Shown in pieces: positions 2,054 to 61,891 of a stretch of DNA of 64,000 bases (its first letter is position 1; each line of letters opens with the position of its first letter). Source of the DNA: Deltaproteobacteria bacterium RIFCSPHIGHO2_01_FULL_43_49. Its GTDB lineage: Bacteria > UBA10199 > SPLOWO2-01-44-7. Location: positions 186,001 through 250,000 of the forward strand of contig MGRG01000008.1 of assembly GCA_001798075.1 (NCBI GenBank). The letters are read 5' to 3'. The position numbers were made by a program, and so were the translations under genes. The notes under the pieces are model-generated. The model ran no database searches. It was not told where the DNA came from and saw only the letters and a program-made list of their open reading frames with translations.

Positions 2054-2158
2054 CAATTCGCTCGCGCCGGCAAAGCCGGACGCTCGCTAAAGTCAGGTGG
2101 AGAATTCCATAGCTCCCCCTGACAACCCCCATCGGTTAGGGAATTTGTTGGCGAATTG
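2054..2158. repeat. Nested palindromic element (outer stem CAATTCGC/GCGAATTG; inner hairpins CCGGCAAAGCCGG and GTCAGGtGGAG...CTCCcCCTGAC)
   Basis: Inverted repeats read directly from sequence. Confidence 0.7.
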
Positions 2159-2168
2159 GTTAAAGATA

Positions 2169-2215
2169 GTAGTGAAAAAGTAGTGGGTGGCCCGCAGTGT
2201 TCTCTTTTTCACTAC
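2169..2215. repeat. Short D-type palindrome S1 (GTAGTGAAAAAG/CTTTTTCACTAC enclosing GGGTGGCCCGCAGTGTT)
   Basis: 12-bp perfect stem; core matches D-family repeats. Confidence 0.8.
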
Positions 2216-2225
2216 CACTTAAATT

Positions 2226-4010
2226 ATGATCAACGATTTTACAATTCGTGTCGCAACGGTGAATGGTTCTGGAAGCCAATCGGCGAACTCTATTTTAATC
2301 AAGGCCCTTTTTTACATGGGGATTCCCGTTGCCGGTAAGAATATTTTCCCATCCAACATTGCAGGACTCCCCACTTGGTACAACATTCGTGTCAGTAAAG
2401 ATGGCTATGTGGGTCACAGGCGTGACGCCGAGATTTTGGTGTTGATGAATGCAGACACCTTTCAAGAAGACCTCGCCGGGGCCAAGCCGGGAACCGTAGT
2501 CATTTATCATGATAAACTAACCCAGCCAGGCATGCGCTCCGATTTGGTTTATTATCCAATTCCTTTTCAAAAATTGGTGATGGAGTGTTGTGAAGTGGCG
2601 ACCTTACGCAAACTGGTGATCAATATGATTTATGTGGGTAGTGTGGCCGCGCTCCTCGATATCGATTTGAATCAAGTTCGCCATGCTTTGGAAAAACAGT
2701 TTCACAGCAAACCAAAAGCGGTTGATCTGAACTGGAAGGCCATCCAAGCGGGTGTTGATTATGTGAAAAAAAATATCAAGAAGAATGATCCTTTTCGTGT
2801 CAGTGCGATGGACAAAACAAAAGGCAAAATTTTGATTACAGGCAATGATGCGGCCGCGTTGGGCTGTTTGTTCGGGGGTTGCACTGTTTTTTCATGGTAT
2901 CCGATTACTCCAGCCTCCAGTGTCGGAGAAGCGGTTATCCAATATTTTTCAAAATATCGCCGCGAGTCCAAAGACAATCAGGCACGATTTGCCGTTGTTC
3001 AGGCGGAAGATGAATTGGCCGCTTTGGGAATGGCGATTGGGGCAGGGTGGGCAGGTGCTCGTGCGGCTACATCCACCTCGGGGCCCGGCATTAGTCTGAT
3101 GGCCGAGTTTGCGGGGTTGAGCTATTTTGCGGAAATCCCCGCGGTAGTTTTTGATGTTCAGCGTCTGGGCCCCTCAACCGGCCTTCCAACAAGGACCAGT
3201 CAGGGGGATATTATTTTTACCCAGTTTTTGTCCCATGGAGACACACAGCACTTGGCAGTGATTCCATCGAATCCTCAAGAGTGTTTTGAATTGTCTCAAG
3301 AGGCTTTTAATTTAGCAGAGGAATTTCAGACCTTGGTTTTTGTTTTGTCTGATCTTGATTTGGGCATGAACAACTGGATGTCGGAACCTTTTTCTTATCC
3401 TAAAGAACCTTTTCAACGTGGCAAGGTTTTAACGGCAGAGCAACTTGAGAAATTGGGTGGGTTTCACCGTTATGCAGATGTGGATGGCGATGGAATTTGT
3501 TATCGGACACTTCCAGGAACTAAACACCCCAAGGCCGCTTATTTTACACGGGGCTCTGGGCATACAGAGCAGGCGACCTATTCTGAGGACACAGAAGATT
3601 GGCAAGGTGTGTTGGATCGGATTGCTAAAAAAATTGAGACGGCGAAAGATAGAGTCCCTCAACCACTGATCGATAGAGTGAGTGGCGCTAAGATTGGATT
3701 GGTTGCCTATGGATCTTCTGATTGCGCATTAATAGAAGCGAGAGATTTTTTAAATGGAAAGGGTTTGAAGACAAATTATTTGAGAGTTAGGGGGTTGCCC
3801 CTCAATGGAAAAGTAGGGAAGTTTGTTGAAGAGTGTGACAGGGTCTATGTCGTCGAACAAAATCAACAAGGACAGATGGCGAATCTGATGAAAATGGCGT
3901 ATCCGGGGTTGGCGGGGAAGCTCAAGTCCGTTTTGCATTATGACGGACTCCCTATCGATGCTGCAAATATTACACAACAGATTTTGAATCGGGAAGGAAA
4001 GGCTAGTTAA
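2226..4010 (+). CDS. korA: 2-oxoacid:ferredoxin oxidoreductase, fused gamma-alpha subunit (KorA-type)
   Basis: 594 aa; N-terminal gamma domain (TVNGSGSQSANSILIKALFYMGIPV), alpha domain (GNDAAALGCLFGGCTVFSWYPITPASSVGE). Confidence 0.9.
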   Translation: MINDFTIRVATVNGSGSQSANSILIKALFYMGIPVAGKNIFPSNIAGLPTWYNIRVSKDGYVGHRRDAEILVLMNADTFQEDLAGAKPGTVVIYHDKLTQPGMRSDLVYYPIPFQKLVMECCEVATLRKLVINMIYVGSVAALLDIDLNQVRHALEKQFHSKPKAVDLNWKAIQAGVDYVKKNIKKNDPFRVSAMDKTKGKILITGNDAAALGCLFGGCTVFSWYPITPASSVGEAVIQYFSKYRRESKDNQARFAVVQAEDELAALGMAIGAGWAGARAATSTSGPGISLMAEFAGLSYFAEIPAVVFDVQRLGPSTGLPTRTSQGDIIFTQFLSHGDTQHLAVIPSNPQECFELSQEAFNLAEEFQTLVFVLSDLDLGMNNWMSEPFSYPKEPFQRGKVLTAEQLEKLGGFHRYADVDGDGICYRTLPGTKHPKAAYFTRGSGHTEQATYSEDTEDWQGVLDRIAKKIETAKDRVPQPLIDRVSGAKIGLVAYGSSDCALIEARDFLNGKGLKTNYLRVRGLPLNGKVGKFVEECDRVYVVEQNQQGQMANLMKMAYPGLAGKLKSVLHYDGLPIDAANITQQILNREGKAS

Positions 4011-4012
4011 CT

Positions 4013-5074
4013 ATGGCAGAACCACAATCACAAACAACACCTTCACAGCCGGCACAGCCCAAGACAAACCGGCTTGGGCTTACGAGACAACAATATACCG
4101 GCTCTCCATCCACTTTGTGTCCAGGTTGTGGGCATGATTCGATCACCAGTTCTCTTATTACCGCTTGTTTTGAACTTGGAGTGGATCCGGTGGATCTCAT
4201 CAAGATGAGTGGCATCGGCTGTTCTTCAAAAACACCGGCTTATTTCATGAGCCAATCGTTTGCCTTCAATGCGGTCCATGGAAGAATGCCCTCTGTCGCA
4301 ACAGGGGCTTTACTAGCTAACCGGGAGTTGAAGTGTATCGGGATCAGCGGTGATGGAGACACCGCCTCCATCGGGATGGGGCAATTTGTTCATTTGTTAA
4401 GGCGCAATGTCCCAATGCTTTATATCATTGAGAATAATGGTGTCTACGGTTTAACCAAGGGTCAATTTTCTGCAACGGCCGATTTAGGCTCCAAGCTAAA
4501 GTCAGGACTCGCCAATGAATTTCCGCCTGTTGATTGCTGTGCCCTTGCAATTGAACTCGGTTGCAATTATGTTGTTCGTTCTTTTTCAGGAGACAATAAA
4601 CAGTTGGTTCCTCTTATTAAAGCAGCATTGTCTCATAAAGGGACGGCTCTCTTAGATGTGATCAGCCCTTGTATTACTTTCAACAATCACGAAGGCTCCA
4701 CGATGAGCTATGATGCGGTTCGTGCCCACGACATTCCACTCCATGAAATTGGTTTTGTCCCCCACTTTGAACCGATTCAAGCCGATTTTGAGCCAGGGAC
4801 GACAAAAGACATCGTGCTGCCAGACGGTTCTCATATTCGTTTAAAAAAATTGAATCGCGATTATGATCCGACGAATAAACTTCTAGCCTTGAAAACTTTA
4901 GCAGAGTCTAAAGAAAAAGGGGAGCTCCTCACCGGCTTGATCTATATCCAGGAAGGAAAACCGGATTACAATGAACTGATGCACTTGAGCGACACCCCTT
5001 TAGCCCATCTGACCGAAAAGGAACTAAAACCAACACCTGCAGCACTTCAAGAGATCATGCAGGAGTTGATGTGA
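4013..5074 (+). CDS. korB: 2-oxoacid:ferredoxin oxidoreductase beta subunit (TPP-binding)
   Basis: 353 aa; CPGCGHDSI, GISGDGDTASIGMGQFVHLLRRN..ENNGVYGLTKGQFS. Confidence 0.93.
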   Translation: MAEPQSQTTPSQPAQPKTNRLGLTRQQYTGSPSTLCPGCGHDSITSSLITACFELGVDPVDLIKMSGIGCSSKTPAYFMSQSFAFNAVHGRMPSVATGALLANRELKCIGISGDGDTASIGMGQFVHLLRRNVPMLYIIENNGVYGLTKGQFSATADLGSKLKSGLANEFPPVDCCALAIELGCNYVVRSFSGDNKQLVPLIKAALSHKGTALLDVISPCITFNNHEGSTMSYDAVRAHDIPLHEIGFVPHFEPIQADFEPGTTKDIVLPDGSHIRLKKLNRDYDPTNKLLALKTLAESKEKGELLTGLIYIQEGKPDYNELMHLSDTPLAHLTEKELKPTPAALQEIMQELM

Positions 5075-5388
5075 TTCAAAAAGAGCTTGTCAAAAAACGT
5101 TTCCCAAATTGGTTGCCGATTCCGCGTTCCTTAAAAGCTGCTTCCCAAGCAATTGTTGTCTCGGAGGATGATTTGTTTCCCAAAGGGGAAGTTGTAAAAT
5201 TTTTTCAAGGCCAAGATTATGGTTTTATCAAGGACCAGCACGGCCGGGATATTTATTTTCACTTGAGTGAGTTGACTTTGGTTGGCCCCAAAAAATCTAG
5301 AGAGCATATTAAGGTGGGTGCCAAAATTGGCTATGATTTGTCGTGGACTTCCAAGGGGGAGCATGTCCGCCGCCTTAAGATATACTAA
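5071..5388 (+). CDS. Small protein with cold-shock (CSD/OB-fold) domain
   Basis: GEVVKFFQGQDYGFIKDQHGRDIYFHLSEL matches the CSD pattern; 4-bp overlap with korB. Confidence 0.75.
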   Translation: MIQKELVKKRFPNWLPIPRSLKAASQAIVVSEDDLFPKGEVVKFFQGQDYGFIKDQHGRDIYFHLSELTLVGPKKSREHIKVGAKIGYDLSWTSKGEHVRRLKIY

Positions 5389-5520
5389 AAATTCTAAACA
5401 CTAAATCCGAAATACTAAACAAATTCCAATGGCCCAAATTCAAATATCCCAAACGATTTGGATTTTGGAAAATTAGGATTTGTGATTTGTTTAGGATTTA
5501 GATATTAGAATTTAGGATTT
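5388..5520. repeat. AT-rich imperfect inverted repeat (AAATTCTAAacaCTAAATCC ... GGATTTAGatattAGAATTT)
   Basis: Left and right halves are reverse complements apart from small gaps. Confidence 0.7.
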
Positions 5521-5522
5521 CC

Positions 5523-6743
5523 ATGAAACGTTTTTGTTACTTAGTTTTTTTCATTATCCTGGGGTGCCCGTTTGTAACGGATGCACAAACATTAAGGTTG
5601 TGGGATTTGCCGAAGGCTTTCAAGACCTCCGAGTTTAGTTTTTTTCCCATCCCCGTTTTTGAAAACGATCCAGCCAGTGGCCAGCGCTATGGCTTCATGC
5701 CAACTTTTCTGATGAGAAATGAAAAAAATGAAATCATTTCTATTTTTGTCGCTGCTTATACTTATAACAGTATTGTGAACCACGGCGGTTTTGCCGGGGC
5801 CTTTTTGTATCCTTCTCCCGAGGAGCGCTTAAGATTATTTGTCCGCGCCAGCGAAAATTTTGAGAGAGATTATTATCTGCAATATCAAAACAATTTGGGT
5901 TTGGATGGCAAACTCGATTGGGAAGCGGAAGTTGAATATTGGCAAAATCCCTTTGAGATGTTTTTTGGTTTTGGACCCAATACCACCAAAAGTACGCAGA
6001 CCAATTTTGTTTCGAGTTTGTGGTGGCTTAAAGGAAGGGTTGCCTATGAATTTTTGCCTGACTTTCATCTTCAGCTGGAAGAAAAATTACTTCGCTTGAA
6101 GATGAAGCAAGGGGCGATCAATTCTCTAGCCGATACGCGGGCCTTTTTTGCGGGCAACTCCCAAGTAGGTGGTTTTAATCAATTCAATCATCGCCTTTCA
6201 CTCTTTTGGGATACGAGAGACGACGAGATTTTCACAAAAAAAGGGCATTATTTAGAATCCTACTTTTTGGCCTCTCATCAGACATTCAACGCGAATCGTT
6301 TTTTTGATGGTTTTGGATTGCATGCCAAAAAAGTTTTTACACTCAAAGATCGTTTTACAACGGTTGCATTTTTGCGCGTTGAACAATTGTTTGGTGACCA
6401 AATACCCTTTTTTCTGCAAAGTAATTTGGGCGGAGGCAATGATCTGAGAGCCTTTGTCGACAGGCGATTTGTGGGGAGGGGCCGTATTTTACTTGATTTG
6501 GAAGAACGGATTCGCATTGTTCGTTTGCGCATTTTGGGGGCCACAATTGAATTTTCACTCGATCCCTTCTTTGCAGTGGGACAGGTTTTTGATCGATGGG
6601 GAGAAGTTCGTTTTGCAAATCTCCAGCCGGTTGGGGGGATTGGTTTTCGTGGTTTAGCCCCTCCTTCTGTTGTGGGGCGAGTCGATTTAGGGTTCGGAAA
6701 AGAAGGTTTTGAAATCTTCACCACTTTGGACTATCCTTTTTGA
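5523..6743 (+). CDS. Outer-membrane beta-barrel protein, BamA/TamA surface-antigen-like
   Basis: 406 aa; signal peptide; barrel-like alternating pattern; ends in aromatic F (TTLDYPF); LGGGNDLRAFVDRRFVGRG. Confidence 0.75.
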   Translation: MKRFCYLVFFIILGCPFVTDAQTLRLWDLPKAFKTSEFSFFPIPVFENDPASGQRYGFMPTFLMRNEKNEIISIFVAAYTYNSIVNHGGFAGAFLYPSPEERLRLFVRASENFERDYYLQYQNNLGLDGKLDWEAEVEYWQNPFEMFFGFGPNTTKSTQTNFVSSLWWLKGRVAYEFLPDFHLQLEEKLLRLKMKQGAINSLADTRAFFAGNSQVGGFNQFNHRLSLFWDTRDDEIFTKKGHYLESYFLASHQTFNANRFFDGFGLHAKKVFTLKDRFTTVAFLRVEQLFGDQIPFFLQSNLGGGNDLRAFVDRRFVGRGRILLDLEERIRIVRLRILGATIEFSLDPFFAVGQVFDRWGEVRFANLQPVGGIGFRGLAPPSVVGRVDLGFGKEGFEIFTTLDYPF

Positions 6744-6751
6744 AAGGTGTT

Positions 6752-6886
6752 AAAAAGTAACGGGTCTTTTTGTTGAAAATGACGGGCTCCGGGTCGGCTC
6801 AGCTGCACGCCCTCCCCACAGATCGGGCTGACAGCATCGCCGACCACCCGTCATTTTCAACATTTCAAAGTACCCCGCAACTTTTT
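6752..6886. repeat. Nested palindromic element A1 (core 6772-6861, outer stem AAAAAGTaaCGGGT / ACCCCGcaACTTTTT)
   Basis: Core shared with 57168-57257; GTTGAAAATGACGGG/CCCGTCATTTTCAAC perfect stem. Confidence 0.85.
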
Positions 6887-6896
6887 AAATTTTTTT

Positions 6897-7694
6897 ATGA
6901 ATTCAATGATTGCTGCGGCGATTCAGATTACTGCGACTGATAACAAGAAGGAAAATTGGGAGAAGGTTGCGCGGTTTGTTGGCGAAGCAGTATCCAAAAA
7001 AGCAAATTTTATTGTTTTGCCAGAGCATTGGAATTGGTTGGGGAAATCTTCAGACAAAAAATCGGTTGCAGAACGCTTGGAAGGTCCAAGTATTCAATTT
7101 GTTCAAGAGCTTGCAAAAAAATATTCCTGTTGGATTGTAGCTGGTTCAATTGCGGAAACCAACGGTGATAAACCTCCTTTCAACACAACGGTTTTCATTC
7201 ATCCCGATGGGAAATTAGGAAAAGTCTATCGCAAGATTCATCTTTTTGATGCACAAGTGGCGGAAGGGCATAAGGAATCTGATTTTACTTCTGCGGGGCA
7301 GGATGTGGTGGTGGAGGATTTGGGTTGGGCGAATGTTGGTTTGAGTATTTGCTATGATGTCCGATTTCCTGAACTATATCGACAACTGGCTACGAAAGGG
7401 GCTGATGTCTTTGCCATCCCCTCCAATTTTACCATCTTTACAGGTGCCCCCCATTGGGAGGTTTTGGTTCGCGCCCGCGCGATCGAAAACCAATGCTTTG
7501 TTATCGCTGCGGATCAGACAGGTCTGACCGGAGCTGGCTGGGAAGCCCATGGGCACTCGATGATTGTTGACCCCTGGGGTGAAATTTTAGCTCAAGCTGG
7601 AAAACAAGAAGGTGTGATTGTTGTGACACTTGATTTCAGGAGACTTTCCGAGATTCGAAACAAAATGCCCGTCCACTCCCACCGAAAGTTGTAA
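6897..7694 (+). CDS. Carbon-nitrogen hydrolase (nitrilase superfamily, NIT2-like)
   Basis: 265 aa; catalytic triad contexts LPEHWN, YRKIHLFD, SICYDVRFPELYR. Confidence 0.92.
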   Translation: MNSMIAAAIQITATDNKKENWEKVARFVGEAVSKKANFIVLPEHWNWLGKSSDKKSVAERLEGPSIQFVQELAKKYSCWIVAGSIAETNGDKPPFNTTVFIHPDGKLGKVYRKIHLFDAQVAEGHKESDFTSAGQDVVVEDLGWANVGLSICYDVRFPELYRQLATKGADVFAIPSNFTIFTGAPHWEVLVRARAIENQCFVIAADQTGLTGAGWEAHGHSMIVDPWGEILAQAGKQEGVIVVTLDFRRLSEIRNKMPVHSHRKL

Positions 7695-7892
7695 AAATGC
7701 CCCCTCTGAAAAATTGCTTCCACTCGCTGGTTTCGAAAAGACGCTCCTCATTTTGGAGAGTTCCCCAAAATGGGAGCTCGACTCTCGTCCCGCTAATTGA
7801 TTAAACCCCCGCAAGGTATAGCGGGACTCCGAGACGCTTTTCTCAACCAGTTCGTTCGCGCAATTTTTCAACACCCCTCCAAGCGGGCATTT
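7695..7892. repeat. Cloverleaf-like nested palindrome B1
   Basis: Outer stems AAATGCCC/GGGCATTT and TGAAAAATTGC/GCAATTTTTCA; two inner hairpins; core shared with 61732-61891, 16685-16970 and 40019-40269. Confidence 0.85.
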
Positions 7893-7936
7893 AAGATTTT
7901 TCTTGATTTTTCGTGGTTTTAAATTAAAATGCTTTT

Positions 7937-8158
7937 ATGGCTAAAACGGCGACTTTATCGACGGTGATAGACTCCAGTGTCAAAAAGGCGGTGGATCAAT
8001 TTTGCGAGCAACGGGGCTTGAAATTGCGATACCTTGTCGAACAGGCATTGGTTGAGCAAATCGAGGATATGGTTGATTTGGAAGCCTACTGGGCAAGACA
8101 TTCCGAGGAAACGATTCCCTTCCATAAAATTCTTGCATCCCGCAAAAAGAGAAAATAA
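7937..8158 (+). CDS. RelB-like/ribbon-helix-helix antitoxin
   Basis: 73 aa, RHH-like N-terminus, directly upstream of a RelE-like toxin. Confidence 0.7.
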   Translation: MAKTATLSTVIDSSVKKAVDQFCEQRGLKLRYLVEQALVEQIEDMVDLEAYWARHSEETIPFHKILASRKKRK

Positions 8159-8160
8159 TC

Positions 8161-9065: not shown

Positions 9066-9119
9066 TTATATATCGGTTCCTTTCAAAAAATGTTGCTAAA
9101 ATTTCCGACGGGGCGAGAA

Positions 9120-13063: not shown

Positions 13064-13129
13064 GCTAGCCCCACCACCTGTTTTTGAGCTAAAAGCCCAC
13101 TTTGTGGACTAAACAGGTGGTGGGGTAGC
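13064..13129. repeat. Long hairpin GCTAgCCCCACCACCTGTTT / AAACAGGTGGTGGGGTAGC with an inner hairpin
   Basis: Near-perfect inverted repeat read directly. Confidence 0.8.
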
Positions 13130-13168
13130 AACTTTTTTGAAAATCTGCCGAAAACTAAAGTAGAGCCT

Positions 13169-16684: not shown

Positions 16685-16970
16685 CCAAACCGGCTACGGG
16701 GCAATTGCTTCCGCTCCCTCTATATTGTATCTAAGCTTGTTTCCGACTGGCTACCTGACTCCGAGGGGATGCAAGGGACGCTATCAAAATGGGGAGTTCC
16801 ACCCCCATTTTGCGCTCTCTCTCGCCCCGCCAATTATTCAATGGCCCCCGTAATGTGTGGCGGGGCTGCGAGAAGCCCTTGCACCCCCTCTCCGTCACGC
16901 CAGTCGGAAACAAGTTCTATTCAAAAAAATAAGGTAGATCACTCACGCAATTGCCATAACGCCGGTTTGG
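16685..16970. repeat. Cloverleaf-like nested palindrome C1
   Basis: Outer stems CCAAACCGGC/GCCGGTTTGG and GGCAATTGC/GCAATTGCC; core GGGACGCTATC[hp1]GCGCTCTCTCTC[hp2]GCGAGAAGCCC. Confidence 0.85.
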
Positions 16971-17091
16971 AACCCCGAACCTCCCACCCATTCTGATTTC
17001 TCCAAAATTCTGTGTGCTAAAAATATTGTGAAAGGGACGCAACTTTTTATACTTTGTGACGATAATAAGAATAGAGGATATAACGGGTATC

Positions 17092-20840: not shown

Positions 20841-20858
20841 ATTACCTCCTAATCGGTG

Positions 20859-20957
20859 TGCTAAAAAATAGGCGGGTCCTGTCCCTCCGTGTTTCTGTGG
20901 GGGCCCCTAACAAAACCCCACAGCAAACACTCCGGGCCACCCACCTTTTTTTTAGCA
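20859..20957. repeat. D-type nested palindrome, copy D1
   Basis: Outer TGCTAAAAAA/TTTTTTAGCA; core TCCGTGTTTCTGTGGGGGCCCCTAACAAAACCCCACAGCAAACACTCCGGGCCACCC. Confidence 0.9.
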
Positions 20958-20967
20958 TCCTCATTAA

Positions 20968-25765: not shown

Positions 25766-25860
25766 ATAAAAAATGGGTAGGGCCTGTCCCTCCGTGTTTC
25801 TGTGGGGGCCCCTAACTAAACCCCACAGCAAACACTCCGGGCCACCCACCCATTTTTTAT
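25766..25860. repeat. D-type nested palindrome, copy D2
   Basis: Perfect outer stem ATAAAAAATGGGT/ACCCATTTTTTAT plus the D core. Confidence 0.92.
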
Positions 25861-25861: not shown

Positions 25862-26078
25862 AATATCCCAAATGGTGAAGGGATTGATTTTGAAAGTGCA
25901 TTTGCGCAGGAGCGAGTTCGTATGACGACGAAAAAAGGATCTTGGCTTTCGAAGTTGGGGGTTGACAGAGGAAAAACACCAACTTCGGCAGTTAAAGCCA
26001 AATCCTTTTTTGGGAGGAATAGAACGAGCGGGCGCAGCACTTTCAAAATCAGATCCCGAAGCCAAATTTGGGCGATAT
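25862..26078. repeat. Large nested palindrome E (~215 bp)
   Basis: TGATTTTGAAAGTGC (25885-25899) vs GCACTTTCAAAATCA (26037-26051); inner AAAAAAGGATcTTGGCTTT...AAAGCCAAATCCTTTTTT; outermost ATATCCCAAAT/ATTTGGGcGATAT. Confidence 0.85.
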
Positions 26079-39987: not shown

Positions 39988-40018
39988 ACCAAAAAGCGTA
40001 GCAGGAAAACCCCCTGTT

Positions 40019-40269
40019 GGCAATCGCTTCCGCTCCCTTCTATTGTTACCTAAGCTTGCTTCCTTCTGGCTACCTGACTGCGAGGGTGTGCAAGGGACGC
40101 TATCTAATTGGGGGCTCTGCCCCCAATTAGCGCTCTCTCTCGGCGATTTTATTTTTGAGCCCCCGCAAGGATAAAATCGCCTGCGAGAAGCCCTCGCACA
40201 CCCTCGCAGTCACGCCATCGGAAACAAGCTTCATGAAAAAAATAAGGTGGGGAAGCCGAAGCGATTGCC
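40019..40269. repeat. Cloverleaf-like nested palindrome C2
   Basis: GGCAATCGCTTC/GAAGCGATTGCC; TGACTGCGAGGGTGTGCaAGGG/CCCTcGCACACCCTCGCAGTCA; two inner hairpins. Confidence 0.9.
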
Positions 40270-40340
40270 ACACATGATCTTCAAACGGCAATATTTTTTG
40301 AAAGGTGTATGGGTTAGGGGTTCGACACTTGAATTAATTC

Positions 40341-41720
40341 TCAATCTTTCTTTTTGAAATAAGATCCCGCAGCTCGAATGCATTGTCTGAAAAAGGCGAT
40401 GTGTTTGGGGTTCAGGTGTTTCACGCTTTCTGGATCGTAATCTTTTTGTGCCGTGAATTTTTCCCAAAGTCCCGCTTCCTGGATTTCCGCAACAATGCTT
40501 AATTTCAATAAATCAATCCATTCGCCATTTCCTTTTTCAAGACCCTGGGTCATGCGATAAACTTGTTCGGGTGGTGCATCCTTTTTAAGATGTGAGAATA
40601 AAGAGCTCATGATAATGGCTTCCTCGCGTCTGTCATGCACTTGTTCTCCGGTACGAAAAAGCTCGTTAATAGTGAGCCACGCATGCATGAGTTGATTTGG
40701 TTCCATCAACTTAAAATCACCGAAGATTTCTTCTGCCATTTGTTCAAAATTACTTTTCTCCTTCTTGGAAATTTTAGCTTTTATAAGTACAAGATAGGCT
40801 TCAATTACCTTGCTGATTTCTTCCAAAGTGGGATTGTTTTTTTGAAAAATATCACGCAGTTTTGGAAATTTTTCGACTAATAATGCTTGATCCCGAAAAT
40901 GTCCTGCTTCATGATCCATGCCGAAAATGAGATCGCTTTCCTTAAGATTGGCATTTGACATCAATCCCAAACGGATTTTGTTCTCTTGACCCGTTAAGGT
41001 CATGGCGAAATGTGGATGTTGGCTGCCAAGCAAGACAACGGGTATTTTGTGAGTTTTTGCATAATCGGATGCCGCTTTGATAAGAGGGGATGTCCACATT
41101 TGAAACGAATGCGAAACAGACAAAGTCAATATTGCGTTGCAAGAAGGTAGGTAATTTGATTCTTGAGGTTGGATGATAGTCGACTTGTCTTCTTCAATTG
41201 GCAAACCCCCTTCTTGTGCAGCTTTACAGGCTTCGTCAATTTGATCACGAGGTTCGGCAGTAAGTGTAATGTCACGGCACTCCACTGACAATATTTTTTC
41301 ATCCTCATCTGAAAATCTTCGCTGCAAATGCCAGCATAGTTGATCATTTTTGACTGGACGATCTAAAAGCACCTCGGCGGGTATAAACTCAGTCACATTA
41401 ATTTCGCCGCAATTGCCCCTACTGGGCGAACATCCTATTGATAGTTTTCCGTTATTTTCTATGTTTAAAACTTTTTCAAAATTATCTATGAATTCGAATT
41501 TCATGACTGTTGGGTTCGAAGAGGTCAGACGTCTAAAGTACTGTTTTTGATCACCCACATTGACCACATAACTTACAGATTGGTCTAACCGAGGCAACAA
41601 ACGGCCTTCATGCTCTTTCAGTTTATTTGAGAGCTCATCAACTCGCTTCCTAGTGGCTGGATCGGAGGATCTGGATACGATAGTAAATCCCACAATTTTT
41701 GTTATGATCGACAATGACAT
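40341..41720 (-). CDS. Orphan protein with HExxH (DHEAGHFRDQ) motif, putative metallopeptidase-like
   Basis: ~459 aa from ATG 41720; single HEAGH motif, no other recognised domain. Confidence 0.55.
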   Translation of the reverse strand: MSLSIITKIVGFTIVSRSSDPATRKRVDELSNKLKEHEGRLLPRLDQSVSYVVNVGDQKQYFRRLTSSNPTVMKFEFIDNFEKVLNIENNGKLSIGCSPSRGNCGEINVTEFIPAEVLLDRPVKNDQLCWHLQRRFSDEDEKILSVECRDITLTAEPRDQIDEACKAAQEGGLPIEEDKSTIIQPQESNYLPSCNAILTLSVSHSFQMWTSPLIKAASDYAKTHKIPVVLLGSQHPHFAMTLTGQENKIRLGLMSNANLKESDLIFGMDHEAGHFRDQALLVEKFPKLRDIFQKNNPTLEEISKVIEAYLVLIKAKISKKEKSNFEQMAEEIFGDFKLMEPNQLMHAWLTINELFRTGEQVHDRREEAIIMSSLFSHLKKDAPPEQVYRMTQGLEKGNGEWIDLLKLSIVAEIQEAGLWEKFTAQKDYDPESVKHLNPKHIAFFRQCIRAAGSYFKKKD

Positions 41721-41836
41721 AAGAATTTCCTTTCGATAACCTCGCAAAGCTTATCGACAGTGCCGAAAAAAAGTTGTGTGTTTTTGCCACATTTTCTAAC
41801 CGCCTAATATTATTACACAATTTCATGGTGTATAGT

Positions 41837-41945: not shown

Positions 41946-42032
41946 GAAGCGAAGGGGTGGCCCGGAGTGTTTGTTGTGGGGTTTAGTTAGGGGCCCCCAC
42001 AAAAACACGGAGGGACAGGACCCCGAAGCTTC
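41946..42032. repeat. D-type nested palindrome, copy D3 (opposite orientation to D1/D2)
   Basis: GGGTGGCCCGGAGTGTTTGTTGTGGGGTTTAGTTAGGGGCCCCCACAAAAACACGGAGGGACAGGACCC. Confidence 0.9.
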
Positions 42033-51370: not shown

Positions 51371-51418
51371 TGTTGAAAAAGTAGCGGGTCCCTCGGGCCA
51401 CCCACTACTTTTTCAACA
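51371..51418. repeat. Short D-type palindrome S2 (TGTTGAAAAAGTAG/CTACTTTTTCAACA)
   Basis: 14-bp perfect stem enclosing cGGGTCCctCGGGCCACCCa. Confidence 0.92.
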
Positions 51419-52615: not shown

Positions 52616-53194
52616 TTACTTGGCTTTTTCTTTTAGTGTCGCGACTACGCTATCAAAACAGGCGCTCGCTTTTTTGTAGGCATCTTTGTTGGCAATCAAA
52701 GTGAAGAAGTAGAGTGTCCCATTACCAAATACGGAAATACTCTTCAGTCTGGAAAAAGCGGAGCCGATTGGTTGTTTTCCTTCCATAAGAAAGGCATCAA
52801 AATCACTTATTTTGATCACTTTTTCTTTGGAGATCTTCACCGAAGATTCTTTGAGATGTTCTGGAAATTCCTTCTTATATTTTTCAACCGTTACTTCTGG
52901 CCTTAAATCTTGAGCCCGCAATTGAATCTGTGCTGAATGGTCGGCGTTTTCCCACATATTTTCTGCCTGACGTTCCCAGAGCGGAGGTTGAAAACTAAAC
53001 GTTTTCCTGTCAACCACCTCACCAATACAATCGGATTGCGCATAGACGAAACAGGGGAAAAGTAAAAAAAATAAAACAAGATAACAAAAATGATGGGAAG
53101 TGGTGGGTGGCCCGGAGTGTTTGTCGTGGGGTTTAGTTAGGGGCCCCACGAAAACACGGAGGGGCAGGACCCGCCACTTTTCGTTAGCTTGCAC
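52616..53194 (-). CDS. Exported hypothetical protein, start codon uncertain (GTG candidates 53194 or 53149, at or inside repeat D4)
   Basis: Signal-peptide-like FCYLVLFFLLFPCFVYAQSDC; no ATG between the repeat and the hydrophobic core. Confidence 0.5.
   Translation of the reverse strand: MQANEKWRVLPLRVFVGPLTKPHDKHSGPPTTSHHFCYLVLFFLLFPCFVYAQSDCIGEVVDRKTFSFQPPLWERQAENMWENADHSAQIQLRAQDLRPEVTVEKYKKEFPEHLKESSVKISKEKVIKISDFDAFLMEGKQPIGSAFSRLKSISVFGNGTLYFFTLIANKDAYKKASACFDSVVATLKEKAK
53098..53180. repeat. D-type nested palindrome, copy D4
   Basis: GGGTGGCCCGGAGTGTTTGTCGTGGGGTTTAGTTAGGGGCCCCACGAAAACACGGAGGGGCAGGACCC. Confidence 0.9.
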
Positions 53195-54435: not shown

Positions 54436-54528
54436 GCGAGAAAAAGTAGGGCCTGCCCCTCCGTGTTGCTGTGGGGGCCCCTAACAAAACCCCACAGCCA
54501 ACACTGCGGGCCACCCACTTTTCCTCGC
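54436..54528. repeat. D-type nested palindrome, copy D5
   Basis: Outer GCGAG..CTCGC; core CCGTGTTGCTGTGGGGGCCCCTAACAAAACCCCACAGCCAACACTGCGGGCCACCC. Confidence 0.9.
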
Positions 54529-55644: not shown

Positions 55645-55650
55645 AAGGTA

Positions 55651-55693
55651 GTGAAAAAGTAGGGGTCCTTCGGGCCACCCTCTACTTTTTCAC
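55651..55693. repeat. Short D-type palindrome S3 (GTGAAAAAGTAG/CTACTTTTTCAC)
   Basis: 12-bp perfect stem enclosing GGGTCCttCGGGCCACCC. Confidence 0.92.
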
Positions 55694-55697
55694 ATCT

Positions 55698-55737
55698 TTA
55701 TGTCATTGCGAGCGTTAGCGAAGCAATCTCATTACTT
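55698..55737. repeat. TCATTGCGAGCG...AGCGAAGCAATCTC-type repeat
   Basis: tgtcattgcgagcgttagcgaagcaatctc resembles the widespread CATTGCGAGC/GCAATC repeat class. Confidence 0.7.
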
Positions 55738-56572
55738 CCGGTGATAATTTCAGGTGATGTTGTTTGGCAAGGTCGGCGAGGCTTTCCCAGGTGCCTACAT
55801 CGGACCAGGTGAATGGTGCCTCCACCACAAGTAGGTCTTTTGATTTTTCCATCACGGCATAATCAATCGAAATCGAAGGAGCTTTTTCGAAAAATCCTTC
55901 AAGGGTTGTTTCTTTTTGGAGCAAAGAATAAATTTCAGGCGCCAGTTTTTGGAATGATTCTACCATTTTTGCGACTGGAAAAATAAAAGTGCCTCCGTTC
56001 CAATAGTAGTTACCATCTTGCAGAAACTTCCTTGCGGTTGAGGCATCCGGCTTTTCCACAAACTCTTTTACTTGATTACCCTCTCTATGGAGATAGCCAT
56101 GGTGTGTGGAAGCAAAAGTTGGCTTGATACCAATAGTAACAATGCTGTTTTCTTTTTTGGCAATTTCGCAAGCCTCCTGGATTGATCGAAGAAAGGTCTC
56201 TTCCGGTGTAATGAATTGATCGGATGGTATTGCCATGAGGATAGCTTCTTTTTTTCGTTTCATCAGTTGAAAACTGACCCAAGCAAGACAGGGTGCTGTG
56301 TTTTTCTTCTGCGTTTCTCCAAAAATTTGCGTTTCTTTCATCTGCGGTAACTGCTCTTTGACAAGGGGGATGTAGCGTTGATTGGTCGCAACTAAAATGT
56401 TTTCAGGATCAAAAAGTTTGGCCAGCCGGTCATAGCTTTGTTGCAAAAGTGTTTTTTCTGGGTGGATCAATTTCAAAAATTGCTTTGGTTTTTCAGGGGT
56501 GCTTAAAGGCGCAAAGCGTGTTCCTTCACCGCCTGCCATGATCAACGCGTAGTTTTGATTGGAGAGTTGCAT
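55715..56572 (-). CDS. Mannose-1-phosphate guanylyltransferase-like nucleotidyltransferase (C-terminally short)
   Basis: YALIMAGGEGTRFAPLSTPEKPKQFLKL; FVEKPD; WNGGTFIF; WSDVGTWESL. Confidence 0.88.
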   Translation of the reverse strand: MQLSNQNYALIMAGGEGTRFAPLSTPEKPKQFLKLIHPEKTLLQQSYDRLAKLFDPENILVATNQRYIPLVKEQLPQMKETQIFGETQKKNTAPCLAWVSFQLMKRKKEAILMAIPSDQFITPEETFLRSIQEACEIAKKENSIVTIGIKPTFASTHHGYLHREGNQVKEFVEKPDASTARKFLQDGNYYWNGGTFIFPVAKMVESFQKLAPEIYSLLQKETTLEGFFEKAPSISIDYAVMEKSKDLLVVEAPFTWSDVGTWESLADLAKQHHLKLSPEVMRLLR

Positions 56573-56603
56573 TTGTTTCGAACCAATGTTAGGCAGGCTT
56601 CAT

Positions 56604-57161
56604 ATGGCATTTCAATCAAAAACTCAACTGTTGGAATTTGGGGCGGCCGCGCCAGACTTTAACTTACCAGGTGTGGATGGCAAAACTTATCGACTCTGGG
56701 ATTACAAAAACAAGGCCAAGGCGGTGGTCATTATTTTTGCCTGTAATCATTGTCCTTATGTCCTGGCCTATGAAGATAGAATGATTCAGATTTCGAAAGA
56801 TTATGTGGAGAAGGGAGTTCAGTTTTTTGTCATCAACGCCAACGAAACCAAAAATTATCCGGAAGATTCGTTTGAAAAAATGAAGGAGCGAACCAAAATC
56901 AAAAAATTTCCTTATCCTTATCTGCGCGATGAAGATCAAAAAGTAGCGGAAAGTTTTGGGGCTGGTTGTACGCCGGAGGTCTTTTTGCTCGATAGTGCTT
57001 TAAAACTCCAATACCATGGGCGGATTGATGACAATTGGCAGGAGCCTGCCCAGGCCAAACAGCATTATTTACGGGAGGCTCTCAATGCCGTCCTCGAAAA
57101 GAAGCCTGTTTCCCGCCCCGAAACCCATCCTATAGGGTGTTCTATTAAATGGAGTTCCTAA
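56604..57161 (+). CDS. Thioredoxin-fold AhpC/TSA-type redox protein
   Basis: APDFNLPGVDGKTYRLWDYKNKAKAVVIIFACNHCPYV. Confidence 0.88.
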   Translation: MAFQSKTQLLEFGAAAPDFNLPGVDGKTYRLWDYKNKAKAVVIIFACNHCPYVLAYEDRMIQISKDYVEKGVQFFVINANETKNYPEDSFEKMKERTKIKKFPYPYLRDEDQKVAESFGAGCTPEVFLLDSALKLQYHGRIDDNWQEPAQAKQHYLREALNAVLEKKPVSRPETHPIGCSIKWSS

Positions 57162-57167
57162 ACAGAG

Positions 57168-57257
57168 ATTTTTGGATGACAGGGCCTGCTCGGCTTGCTG
57201 CACGCCCTCCCGACAGATCGGGCTGACAGCTTCGCCGACCACCCGTCATCCAAAAAT
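57168..57257. repeat. Nested palindromic element A2
   Basis: Outer ATTTTTGGATGACaGG / CGTCATCCAAAAAT; core CTGCACGCCCTCCCGACAGATCGGGCTGACAGC...CGCCGACCACCCGTCA shared with A1. Confidence 0.9.
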
Positions 57258-57335
57258 CACGTGGTATTAGGGTTAAAATTTTGTAAGCAACTTTTTTAGA
57301 GGCTTGCCGAAGGTATAGATAGTAAGGAGGTTTTT

Positions 57336-57932
57336 ATGAAAAAGGTGTTTATTCTTTTATTTTTGGGTTTGGCTTTGCAACCTATCGCACAGGCGAGGAT
57401 GTCTGGAGATACCTTCAATTCTGGAGAGAAGGTTACGGCGGGGAAATTATTTTTGAATCAAGTTGATATGGTAAGCCTTTACTTATCAACCGAGCGTGTT
57501 GTTTATGTTCCAAGGTTAACCTCTGATACGCACTTGAGTGTTGAGCTAACAATTCTTGGAATGGGTTCGAATGCTAGTGAAGCCCTCAAAAATTTTGTCA
57601 TGCGTCACATCAATACTTTTAACAAAACACTTCGTGAAAGACTTGAGTATTACACACCGACTTTGGCTAACGAATTTGATCCTACTCAAGATGTCCAGTT
57701 TAGCATCCATGTTGGAACTGATAAAAGGAAAGTAGCGACTTGGTCGGGTGGGCAATGGGCTTGGGTTGAAAGGGTGCAAAAACAGCGTGTGGCAGAAGCA
57801 AGCCCGGTTACTCAAGCAACATCACCGCAACCTTTTACGGAAATTCAGCCTAAGGAAGTTCAGAAAGAAAAGAAGACTTGTGAAAAATCGTGTCCTGCCA
57901 TGATAGGAGAGGAAGAAACACAGGCCGATTAA
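57336..57932 (+). CDS. Exported hypothetical protein
   Basis: 198 aa with signal peptide. Confidence 0.6.
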   Translation: MKKVFILLFLGLALQPIAQARMSGDTFNSGEKVTAGKLFLNQVDMVSLYLSTERVVYVPRLTSDTHLSVELTILGMGSNASEALKNFVMRHINTFNKTLRERLEYYTPTLANEFDPTQDVQFSIHVGTDKRKVATWSGGQWAWVERVQKQRVAEASPVTQATSPQPFTEIQPKEVQKEKKTCEKSCPAMIGEEETQAD

Positions 57933-57974
57933 TTCAAACAACCGTGGTTTTTAGAGGTACCCGTATGCAACTCC

Positions 57975-58277
57975 CTAATTCCACTGGCATTTTTTCTCCA
58001 CACAGCCACATTTCACTCTGAAAGAGTCGGCTCGATAGCAAGCGCGATACTCGCAGATAGTGATCACCGGCTTTTCCTTTTTTCCCTGGCAAACTTCGCC
58101 GGAACACCCGCCTGTTTGGCAATCTGTGTCGGTTTTGCAAGCTTCCCCGGTAGATCGACCACAAAATTCTTTAGGAAGACCCAAAGTATCGGCCTTCAGG
58201 CTTTCAGTAGACCCTAAGACGAGAAAACTGGTCAGTAGAAAAAACAAAATATTTTTTTTCATGCTTTTATTAAACAC
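57975..58277 (-). CDS. Small exported cysteine-rich protein
   Basis: 100 aa; signal peptide; Cys-rich (CGRSTGEACKTDTDCQTGGCSGEVCQGKK...CEYRACYRADSFRVKCGCVEKKC). Confidence 0.65.
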   Translation of the reverse strand: MFNKSMKKNILFFLLTSFLVLGSTESLKADTLGLPKEFCGRSTGEACKTDTDCQTGGCSGEVCQGKKEKPVITICEYRACYRADSFRVKCGCVEKKCQWN

Positions 58278-58280
58278 CTT

Positions 58281-58301
58281 AAAGTTGACGGTGTCAACTT
58301 T
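58281..58301. promoter_or_regulatory. Palindromic operator-like site AAAGTTGACggtGTCAACTTT
   Basis: 9+9 perfect inverted repeat; half-sites match 59837-59849. Confidence 0.65.
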
Positions 58302-58701
58302 GTGATGCCCAACCTTGTTTTTGTAGGAGATCGAAAACTCTTTTTGCGATCTCTTCGCGAATGAATCGCACCGCCTCTAGCGATTTTCCTTTCGGATCGG
58401 GTATTGACCAATCGTCTCGGAGTATTCCCACAACTACAGGGCATGCTTCACCACAGCCCATTGTAATTAACATCTGAGCTTTTTGCGCTAGTTCATCCGT
58501 CAACTTTTGAGGTTTGAGCTGAGAAAGATCGATACCAACTTCGCGCATCACATCAATGACTTCAGGATGGATCTCCTTGGCTGGTTCTGTTCCCGCTGAA
58601 ATCGCAGTTGCTTTTTTGGGGTCCACAAAAGCGTTAAACAAGGCCGCCGCCATTTGGGAACGTCCCGCATTATGAACACATGCGAAGAGGACCGTTTTCA
58701 T
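58294..58701 (-). CDS. arsC: Arsenate reductase, low-MW-phosphatase type
   Basis: MKTVLFACVHNAGRSQMAAALFN; TMGCGEACPVV. Confidence 0.92.
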   Translation of the reverse strand: MKTVLFACVHNAGRSQMAAALFNAFVDPKKATAISAGTEPAKEIHPEVIDVMREVGIDLSQLKPQKLTDELAQKAQMLITMGCGEACPVVVGILRDDWSIPDPKGKSLEAVRFIREEIAKRVFDLLQKQGWASQS

Positions 58702-59768
58702 GGCAACTTTTCTTCTCGAACACATGCTGCCGCCTGAGGAACAAACCAGTGTCGCGTGCGATTGCAAAACGAACAGACGGAGAGCATCACCGGTACCTCG
58801 ACAAGCACCCCCACAACTGTCGCCAAGGCGGCACCGGATTCTGGTCCAAACAAAGCAATAGCGGTGGCCACTGCCAATTCAAAAAAATTGCTCGCCCCAA
58901 TGAGAGCGCCGGGGGCAGCCACGGAATAGGGAACCTCGAAAAAATGCATGAGTCCATAGGTGAGTGAAGCGTTGAAATAGACTTGGAGAAGGATGGGGAC
59001 TGCGATCAATAATACATGCCAAAATTTCCCTGTGACGTTGTCGGCCTGGAAAGCGAAAATACAGATCAATGTGGCGAGCAGTGCCAATATGCTGACCGGT
59101 GAAAAACGGGGTAACAATTCTTTTTCGAACCAATTTTTCCCGTGTTTCCGAATAAACCATGTCCGGAGGGCAATACCAAAAGACAGCGGGATTACGATGA
59201 AAGCAATCACCGAATAGAGCAGGACTTGAAACGGAACCTCCAGTGATGAAGCACCGCTAACCAGAAACCGGACAATGGGGGCGAACAAGAAGAGCATCAA
59301 GAGATCATTTACGGACACCTGAACCAGCGTATAGGCGGGATCCCCCTTTGTGAGATGACTCCAAACGAACACCATCGCCGTGCAGGGCGCTGCCGCGAGT
59401 ATGATGGTTCCGGCAATGTATTGGGCGGCTTCGGAAGGAGTGATCCAGGCTGCAAAGAGATGGCGAAAAAAGAACCAGGCAATCAAAGCCATCGAAAAGG
59501 GTTTGACCAGCCAGTTGACAAAGAGTGTGATGAAAAGACCCCTGGGTTTTTTGCCGATGTCACGGATGGAGGCAAAATCGACCTTCATCATCATGGGGAT
59601 GATCATGAGCCAAATCAACATCGCAATCGGGACATTGATCTGACTTCCTGTCCCGAATTCCCAATGTCTCAGAAGAGCGATTGTGCTCGGAAACAGCTTT
59701 CCGAGAAAGACTCCCACGATCATGCACAAAGCCACCCAAAACGATAAATACCGTTCAAAACGATTCAT
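58698..59768 (-). CDS. ACR3-family arsenite efflux transporter
   Basis: PMMMKVDF; GTIILAAAPCTAMVFVWSHLTKGDPAYTLVQVSVNDLLML. Confidence 0.95.
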   Translation of the reverse strand: MNRFERYLSFWVALCMIVGVFLGKLFPSTIALLRHWEFGTGSQINVPIAMLIWLMIIPMMMKVDFASIRDIGKKPRGLFITLFVNWLVKPFSMALIAWFFFRHLFAAWITPSEAAQYIAGTIILAAAPCTAMVFVWSHLTKGDPAYTLVQVSVNDLLMLFLFAPIVRFLVSGASSLEVPFQVLLYSVIAFIVIPLSFGIALRTWFIRKHGKNWFEKELLPRFSPVSILALLATLICIFAFQADNVTGKFWHVLLIAVPILLQVYFNASLTYGLMHFFEVPYSVAAPGALIGASNFFELAVATAIALFGPESGAALATVVGVLVEVPVMLSVCSFCNRTRHWFVPQAAACVREEKLP

Positions 59769-59836
59769 TCAATTTTTCCTCCTGAACTTCAAATCTAACA
59801 GAATTTTTCTCATCGTCTTTCTTAAATATCAGAGGG

Positions 59837-59849
59837 TTGACTCCGTCAA
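59837..59849. promoter_or_regulatory. Operator-like site TTGACtccGTCAA upstream of the ars operon
   Basis: Same half-sites and spacing as 58285-58297; overlaps a candidate -35 on the minus strand. Confidence 0.6.
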
Positions 59850-59881
59850 TCATGTATCTTATTGGTGGTTAAACGATTAAA

Positions 59882-59921
59882 GCGCCCGTAGCTCAACGGA
59901 TAGAGCATCTGGCTTCGGACC
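59882..59921 (+). pseudogene. 5' part of a second tRNA-Arg copy
   Basis: gcgcccgtagctcaacggatagagcatctggcttcggacc, one mismatch to the intact tRNA at 60111, then diverges. Confidence 0.8.
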
Positions 59922-60110
59922 GCAGTCGGGGAACCCAAAACCGTGTAGTAACACTGTTTTGGGTCGACTGATGTTGATTAACTAAGACTCAAAGGTTTCT
60001 TTCTTGGTAAGAAATTACAAATGCGCTAGGAAGGGTTGGGAGTTGCGGAACTCACGTTCCGCCACGTGTAAGGGGGCTGTATGACTGCCCATCCTACTTG
60101 TGATGAAAGC

Positions 60111-60183
60111 GCGCCCGTGGCTCAACGGATAGAGCATCTGGCTTCGGACCAGAGGGTTGGGAGTTCGAATCTCTCCGGGCGCG
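60111..60183 (+). tRNA. tRNA-Arg (anticodon TCG)
   Basis: GCGCCCG/CGGGCGC acceptor, GCTC/GAGC D-arm, TCTGG CTTCGGA CCAGA anticodon arm, GGGAG TTCGAAT CTCTC T-arm. Confidence 0.95.
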
Positions 60184-60237
60184 CTTTCATCAGCTCTCGG
60201 GATGGGCGCCGTCATACAGCACTATTGAATTTTGCAC

Positions 60238-60258
60238 GTTCGAATCTCTCCGGGCGCG
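60238..60258 (+). pseudogene. 3' part (T-loop to acceptor) of a second tRNA-Arg copy
   Basis: gttcgaatctctccgggcgcg, identical to the 3' end of the intact tRNA. Confidence 0.8.
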
Positions 60259-60274
60259 CCATCGAGGCTTCAAC

Positions 60275-61657
60275 TTACTTTCCTAGATATTTGATGAAGT
60301 CGATTTTGGTAATCAGACCTAAGAATTTTTTGCCTTCCTTAACAATGGCGATCTCGTCTGCCTCAAAAACTTTGAACATCGCATCGATTGGGTCGTCGGC
60401 TTGCAGGGTGTGTAGGTCTGTCTTCATGATGAGACTGATCGAATCTTTGGCGCTCACTTCTCCCTTGGCGAGAGGCCCCAAAATATCACTATCCGCAACC
60501 AGTCCCATAATTTGATTTTTATCCATCACAGGCAACTGAGAAACCCCTTCTTTCGCCATTTTTTCGATGACTTTTCCCACAGTGTCTTTCAGTGTTGCCG
60601 TCACGACCTGACCTCGATCATGGCGTTTGGCTACCAAATCTTCCACAACACCATACGGTGTGGTGATCCCTTCCCAAAAACCTTGCTCTTGCATCCATTG
60701 GTCATTAAAAAGTTTGGAGAGATAGCGGCTTCCCGAATCGGGCAGAATCACAACAATGTTTTGTGGCGTTTTTAAGCTTTGGGCATAACGAATAGCTCCC
60801 ACAACGGCTGCTCCACCAGAACTCCCGACAAAAATCCCTTCTTTTGTCAAAAGTTGTCTCGCCATCTGATACGATTCTTTATCGTAGGCCTTCACCATGT
60901 GGGTCAATTGCTTCAAATCGGTGGTGGATGGAAAAAAGTCTTCGCCGATCCCCTCAATTTTATAGATATGCGGTTTGATTTTCTTTTTGTAATAAAAATA
61001 ATCGTAGAAAACAGACCCTTCCGGATCGACACCGACAATTTTAATATCTTTCTTTTTTTCTCTTAAATATCTTGCAATACCGGTCATGGTGCCGCCGGTA
61101 CCAATGCCTAAAACAACGGCATCGACAGTTCCTTTTGTTTGTTTCCAAATTTCCGGGCCGGTGGTTTTGTAATGGGCTGTTGGGTTGTCGGGGTTGTGAT
61201 ATTGGTTGGCATAAAACGAGTTGGGGGTGACTTCTGCAAGGCGTTTAGCAACCGAGTAGTAACTTCTGGGGTCTTCGGGTTCAACATTGGTTGGGGTCAC
61301 TACCACTTTGGCCCCAAAGGCCCTTAGATTTAGAATTTTTTCTTTGCTCATTTTGTCGGGGATGACAAAAATGAGTTTATAGCCTTTGATGGCCCCTGCG
61401 ATGGCCAATGCCATACCGGTGTTGCCGCTGGTTGCCTCTACGATTGTCCCGCCCGGTTTGAGTTGGCCCCGTTTTTCTGCTTGTTCGATCAGAAAAGAGC
61501 CAATGCGGTCTTTGACCGATCCGCCCGGGTTCATAAATTCCAGTTTAGCAGCAATGATAGAGGGACATTTGCCGACGACTTTGTTAAGTTTGACCAAAGG
61601 AGTTGGCCCGACACACTCCAAAATATTTGCGACAACTCCATGAAATGGTTTTGGCAT
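60275..61657 (-). CDS. Cysteine synthase / cystathionine beta-synthase with C-terminal CBS domains
   Basis: GPTPLVKLN; NPGGSVKDRIG; EATSGNTGMALA; GTGGTMTG; two CBS motifs. Confidence 0.93.
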   Translation of the reverse strand: MPKPFHGVVANILECVGPTPLVKLNKVVGKCPSIIAAKLEFMNPGGSVKDRIGSFLIEQAEKRGQLKPGGTIVEATSGNTGMALAIAGAIKGYKLIFVIPDKMSKEKILNLRAFGAKVVVTPTNVEPEDPRSYYSVAKRLAEVTPNSFYANQYHNPDNPTAHYKTTGPEIWKQTKGTVDAVVLGIGTGGTMTGIARYLREKKKDIKIVGVDPEGSVFYDYFYYKKKIKPHIYKIEGIGEDFFPSTTDLKQLTHMVKAYDKESYQMARQLLTKEGIFVGSSGGAAVVGAIRYAQSLKTPQNIVVILPDSGSRYLSKLFNDQWMQEQGFWEGITTPYGVVEDLVAKRHDRGQVVTATLKDTVGKVIEKMAKEGVSQLPVMDKNQIMGLVADSDILGPLAKGEVSAKDSISLIMKTDLHTLQADDPIDAMFKVFEADEIAIVKEGKKFLGLITKIDFIKYLGK

Positions 61658-61731
61658 GCACGCGCTTTCTAATGAAACTCTTACTAAGTGTCAATGGCGT
61701 AGGGCAGGAGGGGGATGTTCAATGTATGTTT

Positions 61732-61891
61732 GCAATCGCTTCCACTCGCTAGGTTCAGAAAGACGCCCCTCTTTTTGGGGGGATTCCCCAAAAAGGGGGC
61801 TCGCCTCTCAGCCGCCAAATTGATTGAAGCCCCCACAAAGTGTCGGCGGCCTCCGAGACGCTTTCTTCACCTAGTTCGTTCGCGCGATTGC
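61732..61891. repeat. Cloverleaf-like nested palindrome B2
   Basis: GCAATCGC/GCGATTGC outer stem; AGACGCCCCTC[hp1]GGGGCTCGCCTCTC[hp2]CTCCGAGACGCTTTC. Confidence 0.88.

What the first reader, a model, noticed from the sequence alone, without database searches (positions are those of the whole stretch)
2054..61891. Several families of modular, nested, multi-arm palindromes fill intergenic regions: candidate undescribed mobile element system
About fifteen intergenic regions hold 45-290 bp palindromes built as hairpins within hairpins (2054, 2169, 6752, 7695, 13064, 16685, 20859, 25766, 25862, 40019, 41946, 51371, 53098, 54436, 55651, 57168, 61732). Seen directly: within a family the loops and core are conserved, while stems, especially the outermost ones, differ by locus and still pair perfectly. 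Inference: the elements may insert into the apex of an existing hairpin (terminators, tRNA arms, other copies), which would produce nested layers and locus-specific outer stems. No transposase is in the window, so mobilisation would be in trans, for example by a Y1 (RAYT/TnpA-like) or other structure-recognising enzyme. I do not recognise these as a named repeat family.
Basis: partly seen in the sequence, partly recalled or inferred. Interest (0 to 1): 0.85.

Follow-up and report, generated by a model that had tools for sequence, protein, structure and literature searches.

The report
Nested mobile palindromes filling intergenic DNA
This bacterial genome is littered with several families of short hairpin-forming sequences that have recently spread between genes and sit concentrically inside one another like Russian dolls, with outer stems that differ at nearly every site yet pair almost perfectly; the enzyme that moves them is not known.

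Summary
The window lies in a 2.23 Mb MAG whose nearest named relatives are "Deltaproteobacteria" MAGs. Family A has about 95 copies genome-wide. Outer stems are locus-specific and paired: 44 of 68 copies have 8/8 perfect pairs (shuffled mean 1.7), with 52 different 8-mers. The core is 91% identical between copies, the arms 47%. Arm changes are two-sided (covariation score 0.345 against 0.136 shuffled), with almost no G-U intermediates.

Orthologous sites in same-family genomes lack the element and its outer stem, so the stacks are lineage-specific insertions. Family E carries 3-bp target duplications and is inserted in frame in a phosphoglycerate mutase-like gene. Layers nest concentrically in different combinations (D > W2 > S > A-frame > core).

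Insertion into pre-existing terminator hairpins is not supported: no terminator was found at the orthologous empty sites. The six Y1 transposase genes have no family A copy nearby.

Best reading: non-autonomous REP/MITE-like palindromes, mobilised in trans, that tolerate or prefer hairpin apices, with stems kept perfect by DNA-level template switching. New variant of a known kind; mobiliser unknown.

The parts
2051..2161 (.). multi-arm palindrome with outer stem CAATTCGC/GCGAATTG
   Evidence: fold
2170..2215 (.). family A remnant: A-frame end GGGTGGCCCGCAGTGTT inside stem TAGTGAAAAA/TTTTTCACTA
6750..6888 (.). two nested layers: W stem TTAAAAAGTAACGGG (6750-6764/6874-6888) with unpaired spacers around W2 stem TGTTGAAAATGACGGG (6771-6786/6847-6862) holding B frame and core 2
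7707..7870 (.). family C: conserved internal loop GCTTCCACTCGCT/AGTTCGTTCGCGC, two inner hairpins
13069..13125 (.). family E, 57 bp, ends CCCCACCACCTGT, flanked by TAG/TAG duplication
16685..16970 (.). family C, largest copy, three nested stems plus two inner hairpins
20850..20966 (+). family A; site empty in same-family genome G002
25766..25860 (+). family A; site empty in G002
25885..26051 (.). unrelated multi-arm palindrome with stem TGATTTTGAAAGTGC/GCACTTTCAAAATCA
40018..40270 (.). family C, stem TGGCAATCGCTTCCGCTCCC
41948..42030 (-). family A inside D-inner-type stem GAAGCGAAGGGG/CCCCGAAGCTTC (internal loop GAA/GAA)
51371..51418 (.). A frame without core: TGTTGAAAAAGTAGCGGGTCC-CTC-GGGCCACCCACTACTTTTTCAACA
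53099..53180 (-). family A; site empty in G002
54440..54524 (+). family A between divergent genes; site empty in G002, G003, G005
55651..55693 (.). A frame without core at the 3' end of the phosphofructokinase gene; absent in G002 and G005
57167..57258 (+). family B, stem GATTTTTGGATGAC shared with one other copy (L011); site empty in G002
61732..61890 (.). family C, same internal loops as 7707

Best explanation
The palindromes are non-autonomous mobile DNA elements of the REP/MITE kind, in several families. Shown: lineage-specific copies; absence of element and outer stem at orthologous sites; concentric stacking of different modules in different combinations; an internal-loop frame, GGG-TCCTG-YCCC...GGG-YCA-CCC, that stays constant while core and outer stem vary, and that recurs with other cores in other families of the class. 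Inferred: an enzyme acting in trans reads the unpaired bases of the folded single-stranded hairpin, so paired bases need only pair; loops of existing hairpins are used or tolerated as insertion sites, which builds the nested layers; replication template switching (quasi-palindrome correction) copies one arm onto the other, so stems drift quickly but stay perfect. The mobilising enzyme is unknown.
For: About 95 family A copies in this genome against 0-1 in each same-family genome. Empty orthologous sites: phosphofructokinase/convergent gene, several window sites, groES upstream, YajQ 3' end, inositol-phosphatase-like boundary where G002 has overlapping stop and start codons. Covariation with 235 double changes against about 18 one-sided changes in the 12 arm pairs; G-T 5 and A-C 9 of 743 arm pairs, so no wobble preference. 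D-outer halves flank A at nearly equal distances in 11 of 12 and D-inner in 20 of 21 copies, never a whole D on one side. W2 hairpins occur with a 28-nt loop (L169:4659), with B, with A, or with S+A set about 10 nt in from each loop edge. Same frame with a different ~100-nt core and four different, nearly perfect outer stems in G017, and with a third core in G015. Family E: TAA, TCA, TGA, TAG duplications at 4 of 5 copies and an in-frame insert missing from relatives' orthologues. Template switching can create and repair stems in one step (PMC8794818).
Against: No autonomous element carrying these ends was found. Boundaries and target duplications are established only for family E. The relatives are distant (about 66-84% protein identity), so insertion was not observed between strains. 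D copies may descend from few nesting events, and finding nests by folding favours concentric ones. In family A the shared arm consensus means part of the stem diversity is divergence of a common stem, not independent acquisition. Empty sites do not show that an insertion hit a hairpin; only the within-genome host comparisons do.
Confidence: 0.6

Rival explanations
1. Insertion into the apex of pre-existing host hairpins, chiefly intrinsic terminators: the outer stem is the old terminator and only the GGG..CCC interior is mobile.
For: A-tract arms sit close to stop codons (codirectional sites: median 26 nt to upstream stop, 84 to downstream start; 31 of 45 nearer the stop; A-tract copies convergent 10, divergent 6). 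W2 and D-inner loops visibly host other modules. Similar A-tract stems in G002 and G015.
Against: No terminator hairpin at orthologous empty sites, several of which are overlapping or abutting genes. Overall 15 convergent and 15 divergent sites. In the inositol-phosphatase-like locus the arm codes for SSDD*, absent from all four relatives shown. Free hairpins of this length are rare in the sample (24 in the own-genome DNA held, few terminator-like).
Confidence: 0.15
2. No transposition of the outer stem: the core inserts, then template switching copies one flank inverted to the other side and makes a new stem from host sequence.
For: In the YajQ locus the arm GATTAA is ancestral coding sequence and is present inverted in the other arm. 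Several arms include a stop codon of the neighbouring gene. Few wobble intermediates. Mechanism established (PMC8794818).
Against: In the inositol-phosphatase-like locus neither arm matches the ancestral boundary. Arms share a consensus across copies. Window 57168 and L011 share the stem at different sites.
Confidence: 0.15
3. RAYT/REPIN system: the elements are REPINs moved by one of the genome's Y1 transposases.
For: Six Y1 genes in the genome. About a third of family A arms read GT(A/G)G before the GC-rich part (my estimate), the REP head described in PMC2817692.
Against: No family A copy near any of the six genes by coordinates; of the four flanks read, three carry GGTACC-type or GGCGTC..GACGCC palindromes instead. 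G002, a same-family genome with a family A copy, has no Y1 match.
Confidence: 0.1
4. Selected RNA elements (for example bidirectional terminators or mRNA-end structures) maintained by selection on RNA pairing.
For: Strong covariation and constant internal loops; A-tract/T-tract stems near stop codons.
Against: Gene orientation random overall; G-T pairs not favoured over A-C in the transcribed strand (2 against 6); absent in relatives at the same genes; one genome-specific burst.
Confidence: 0.07

Closest known systems
Prokaryotic MITEs and Rickettsia palindromic elements (review PMC10969869)
   Same: short, non-coding, palindromic, many copies, lineage-specific; family E has short duplications and an in-frame gene insertion like RPEs
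   Different: locus-specific outer stems, interchangeable cores, concentric multi-layer nesting; no parent IS found
REP/REPIN elements and RAYT transposases (PMC2817692)
   Same: intergenic palindromes, compensatory stem changes, Y1 genes in the genome, GT(A/G)G-like motif in part of the arms
   Different: longer, nested, internal-loop frame instead of a fixed head, and no Y1 gene found bounded by the family
IS elements that target REP hairpins (IS1397, ISKpn1, IS621, ISPsy8; PMC1525189)
   Same: insertion within a palindrome, for ISPsy8 at its symmetry axis, is established behaviour
   Different: there the insert is an autonomous IS; here insert and host are both small palindromes
Yeast mitochondrial GC clusters (PMC4478555), sponge RHE (PMC2800124) and double-hairpin elements
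   Same: mobile hairpins in intergenic DNA with merging and shuffling of units
   Different: organellar; there stems are conserved and loops vary, the reverse of this case
Pithovirus M1/M2 repeats (PMC10664404)
   Same: palindromic MITE-like repeats colonising non-coding DNA without a known transposase
   Different: M1 and M2 alternate side by side and are not described as concentric

Membership tests
MITE | short, non-coding, with terminal inverted repeats and lineage-specific copies | tested here: met
MITE | target-site duplication | tested here: inconclusive
   3-bp duplications in 4 of 5 family E copies; boundaries of A, B, C, D not fixed enough to test
MITE | ends shared with an autonomous IS | tested here: inconclusive
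   D halves occur only as close pairs or near contig ends; whole genome not scanned for all ends
REP/RAYT | Y1 gene flanked by two inverted copies of the repeat | tested here: not met
   no family A copy near any of six Y1 genes; four flanks read
REP/RAYT | GT(A/G)G head 5' of the palindrome | tested here: inconclusive
   present in roughly a third of family A arms (estimate)
REP-targeting IS | insertion at the symmetry axis of a palindrome | tested here: met
   for small inserts in small hosts
REP-targeting IS | transposase gene within the insert | tested here: not met
   inserts are about 45-110 nt
Known Rfam RNA | match above gathering score | tested here: not met

The most novel reading that the evidence does not exclude
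A transposition system whose substrate and preferred target are both folded DNA hairpins: a trans-acting enzyme reads only the unpaired internal-loop bases, so elements carry arbitrary stems, insert into each other's apices and build layered stacks whose cores can be exchanged.
Probability: 0.3. Interest if true: 0.85.

Novelty: new variant of a known kind. Interest (0 to 1): 0.62.

Why it matters
If right, it gives a natural set of nearly a hundred hairpins with one constant internal loop and dozens of different stems, which would show directly what a hairpin-reading DNA enzyme recognises, and a case where perfect stem covariation arises at DNA level, a warning for the use of covariation as proof of RNA function.

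Tried and rejected
Phage, plasmid and viral-contig searches with family A found nothing. A search for widely spaced D ends that could bound an autonomous element found only close pairs or copies near contig ends. Contig ends inside family C copies looked like a multi-copy IS but are explained as well by assembly failure at long palindromes. A pattern search with the family C arm found only the two window copies. Sites 40019 and 41946 were not used as empty sites because the gene between them (40341-41747) had no hit at the syntenic place in the relatives' loci. A literature search for nested bacterial palindromes found no match.

Full report
Setting. The window is contig 8, 186001-250000, of a 2.23 Mb, 98% complete genome. 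Its nearest named relatives are 'Deltaproteobacteria' MAGs; an 857-aa window protein is 71%, 68% and 66% identical in L086, L093 and L087. Gene order around 37-57 kb is largely kept. Five other genomes of the same family, in four other genera, are held (G001-G005) but no second species of the genus was seen.

Observation. All listed palindromes were found. Family A (20850, 25766, 41948, 53099, 54440) is GGGTCCTGTCCCTCCGTGTTTYTGTGGGGGCCCCTAACWAAACCCCACARCAAACACTCCGGGCCACCC between paired arms. By luck a protein query that ran through a copy listed about 96 family A places; 97 loci, 93 of them full, were collected and a covariance model lists 93. Family B (6771, 57167) and core 2 have 22 hits, family C 34 hits including fragments.

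Stems. In 77 non-D copies, arm positions 2-10 pair in 87-94% of copies against 43-67% expected from column composition. On 68 aligned copies, 92.9% of cells pair (81.5% shuffled), 293 cells change on both sides (89 shuffled), and the score is 0.345 (0.136 shuffled; slid versions at most 0.115). In arm columns 1-12 I count 235 double changes and about 18 one-sided standard changes. Over arm positions 2-11 there are 696 Watson-Crick, 5 G-T and 9 A-C pairs. RNA-level compensation would be expected to leave more G-U. Identity between copies falls from 0.91 in the core and 0.93 in the frame to 0.48 in arms 1-11 and 0.26 in flanks.

Mobility. Orthologous sites in same-family genomes lack element and stem: 53099, 54440, 55651, 57167, 20850 and 25766. 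In the inositol-phosphatase-like locus (L195) G002 reads TTGAAAAAATGATTGATCCC, stop overlapping the next start; the own genome has ATTTTAAAAT, then CGTCTGACGACTGACGGG...CCCGTCAGTCGTCAGGTCATTCG, then TAATTTATGATAGACCC. The last residues SSDD come from the insert. G004, G005 and G001 carry different hairpins or repeats at the same boundary. In the YajQ locus G005 is empty and the own arm includes the ancestral GATTAA. Family E sits in frame in a phosphoglycerate mutase-like gene (L158:18061) and is absent in relatives' orthologues; flanks of four of five copies show TAA, TCA, TGA, TAG.

Nesting. Thirty-two D-inner loci hold A, core 2 in the A frame, W2 with B, or W2 with S and A; L171:14805 and L206:746 have five to six layers. 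D halves lie at matched distances on both sides of A. W2 hairpins occur with a 28-nt loop (L169:4659) or with A, B or S+A inside, S+A leaving about ten loop bases on each side. This is the direct evidence for insertion at hairpin apices, and it concerns palindromic hosts, not terminators.

Wider distribution. The frame recurs with other cores: G004 (core 2), G015 (GGATAAAAAAATGGC stem), and G017, where four copies share a ~100-nt core but have four different outer stems. The strict frame pattern matched 3 of 385 genomes, with no match for the reversed-pattern control in the genomes listed.

Mechanism. Shown: spread, nesting, constant unpaired frame, two-sided stem change. Inferred: trans-acting, structure-reading enzyme; apex use; template switching (PMC8794818) as the cause of perfect drifting stems. 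Y1 genes exist but their surroundings carry no family A copy. Enzyme identity stays open.

Verdict. Real and unusual, close to known MITE/REP biology but with combinatorial concentric nesting and locus-specific stems for which I found no named counterpart in the library searched.

Noticed in passing
window 13131-13165, 17040-17055, 57300-57330; also L046, L052, L123 and relatives L086, L220: Recurrent leader-like motif A(A/G)GCAACTTTTT...(G/C)CCGA or GACGAAG upstream of genes, conserved across genera; no Rfam match; candidate regulatory RNA.
   Followed up: no
window 60101-60192: tRNA-Arg(TCG) whose acceptor stem is extended by about ten perfect flanking pairs, TGATGAAAGC/GCTTTCATCA.
   Followed up: no
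window 5389-5513: AT-rich imperfect 56-nt inverted repeat AAATTCTAAACACTAAATCC..., with similar short hairpins at L005:2796 and L026:154.
   Followed up: no
G000 C13:2682, C12:121725, C2:13858, C12:79275, C6:40267, C14:188652: Six Y1 transposase genes; three of the four flanks read carry GGTACC-type or GGCGTC..GACGCC palindromes.
   Followed up: partly
L093:11411-11541: In a relative, an inverted-repeat pair GGGCACCTCTAAAAAC (IS5-like by memory) holds a GTCATTCTGAGC...GGATGAC palindrome at its centre: nesting in another genus.
   Followed up: no
L020 around 1400-1625: A D element flanked by an imperfect ~25-nt direct repeat TATAAAAAGTTAGGCTCCTAACATC.
   Followed up: no
G000 C1, C5, C6, C7 contig ends: Contigs end inside family C copies.
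   Followed up: partly
L025:1501-1593: Family A copy in the signal-peptide region of a gene, reading frame apparently kept open (428 codons).
   Followed up: partly
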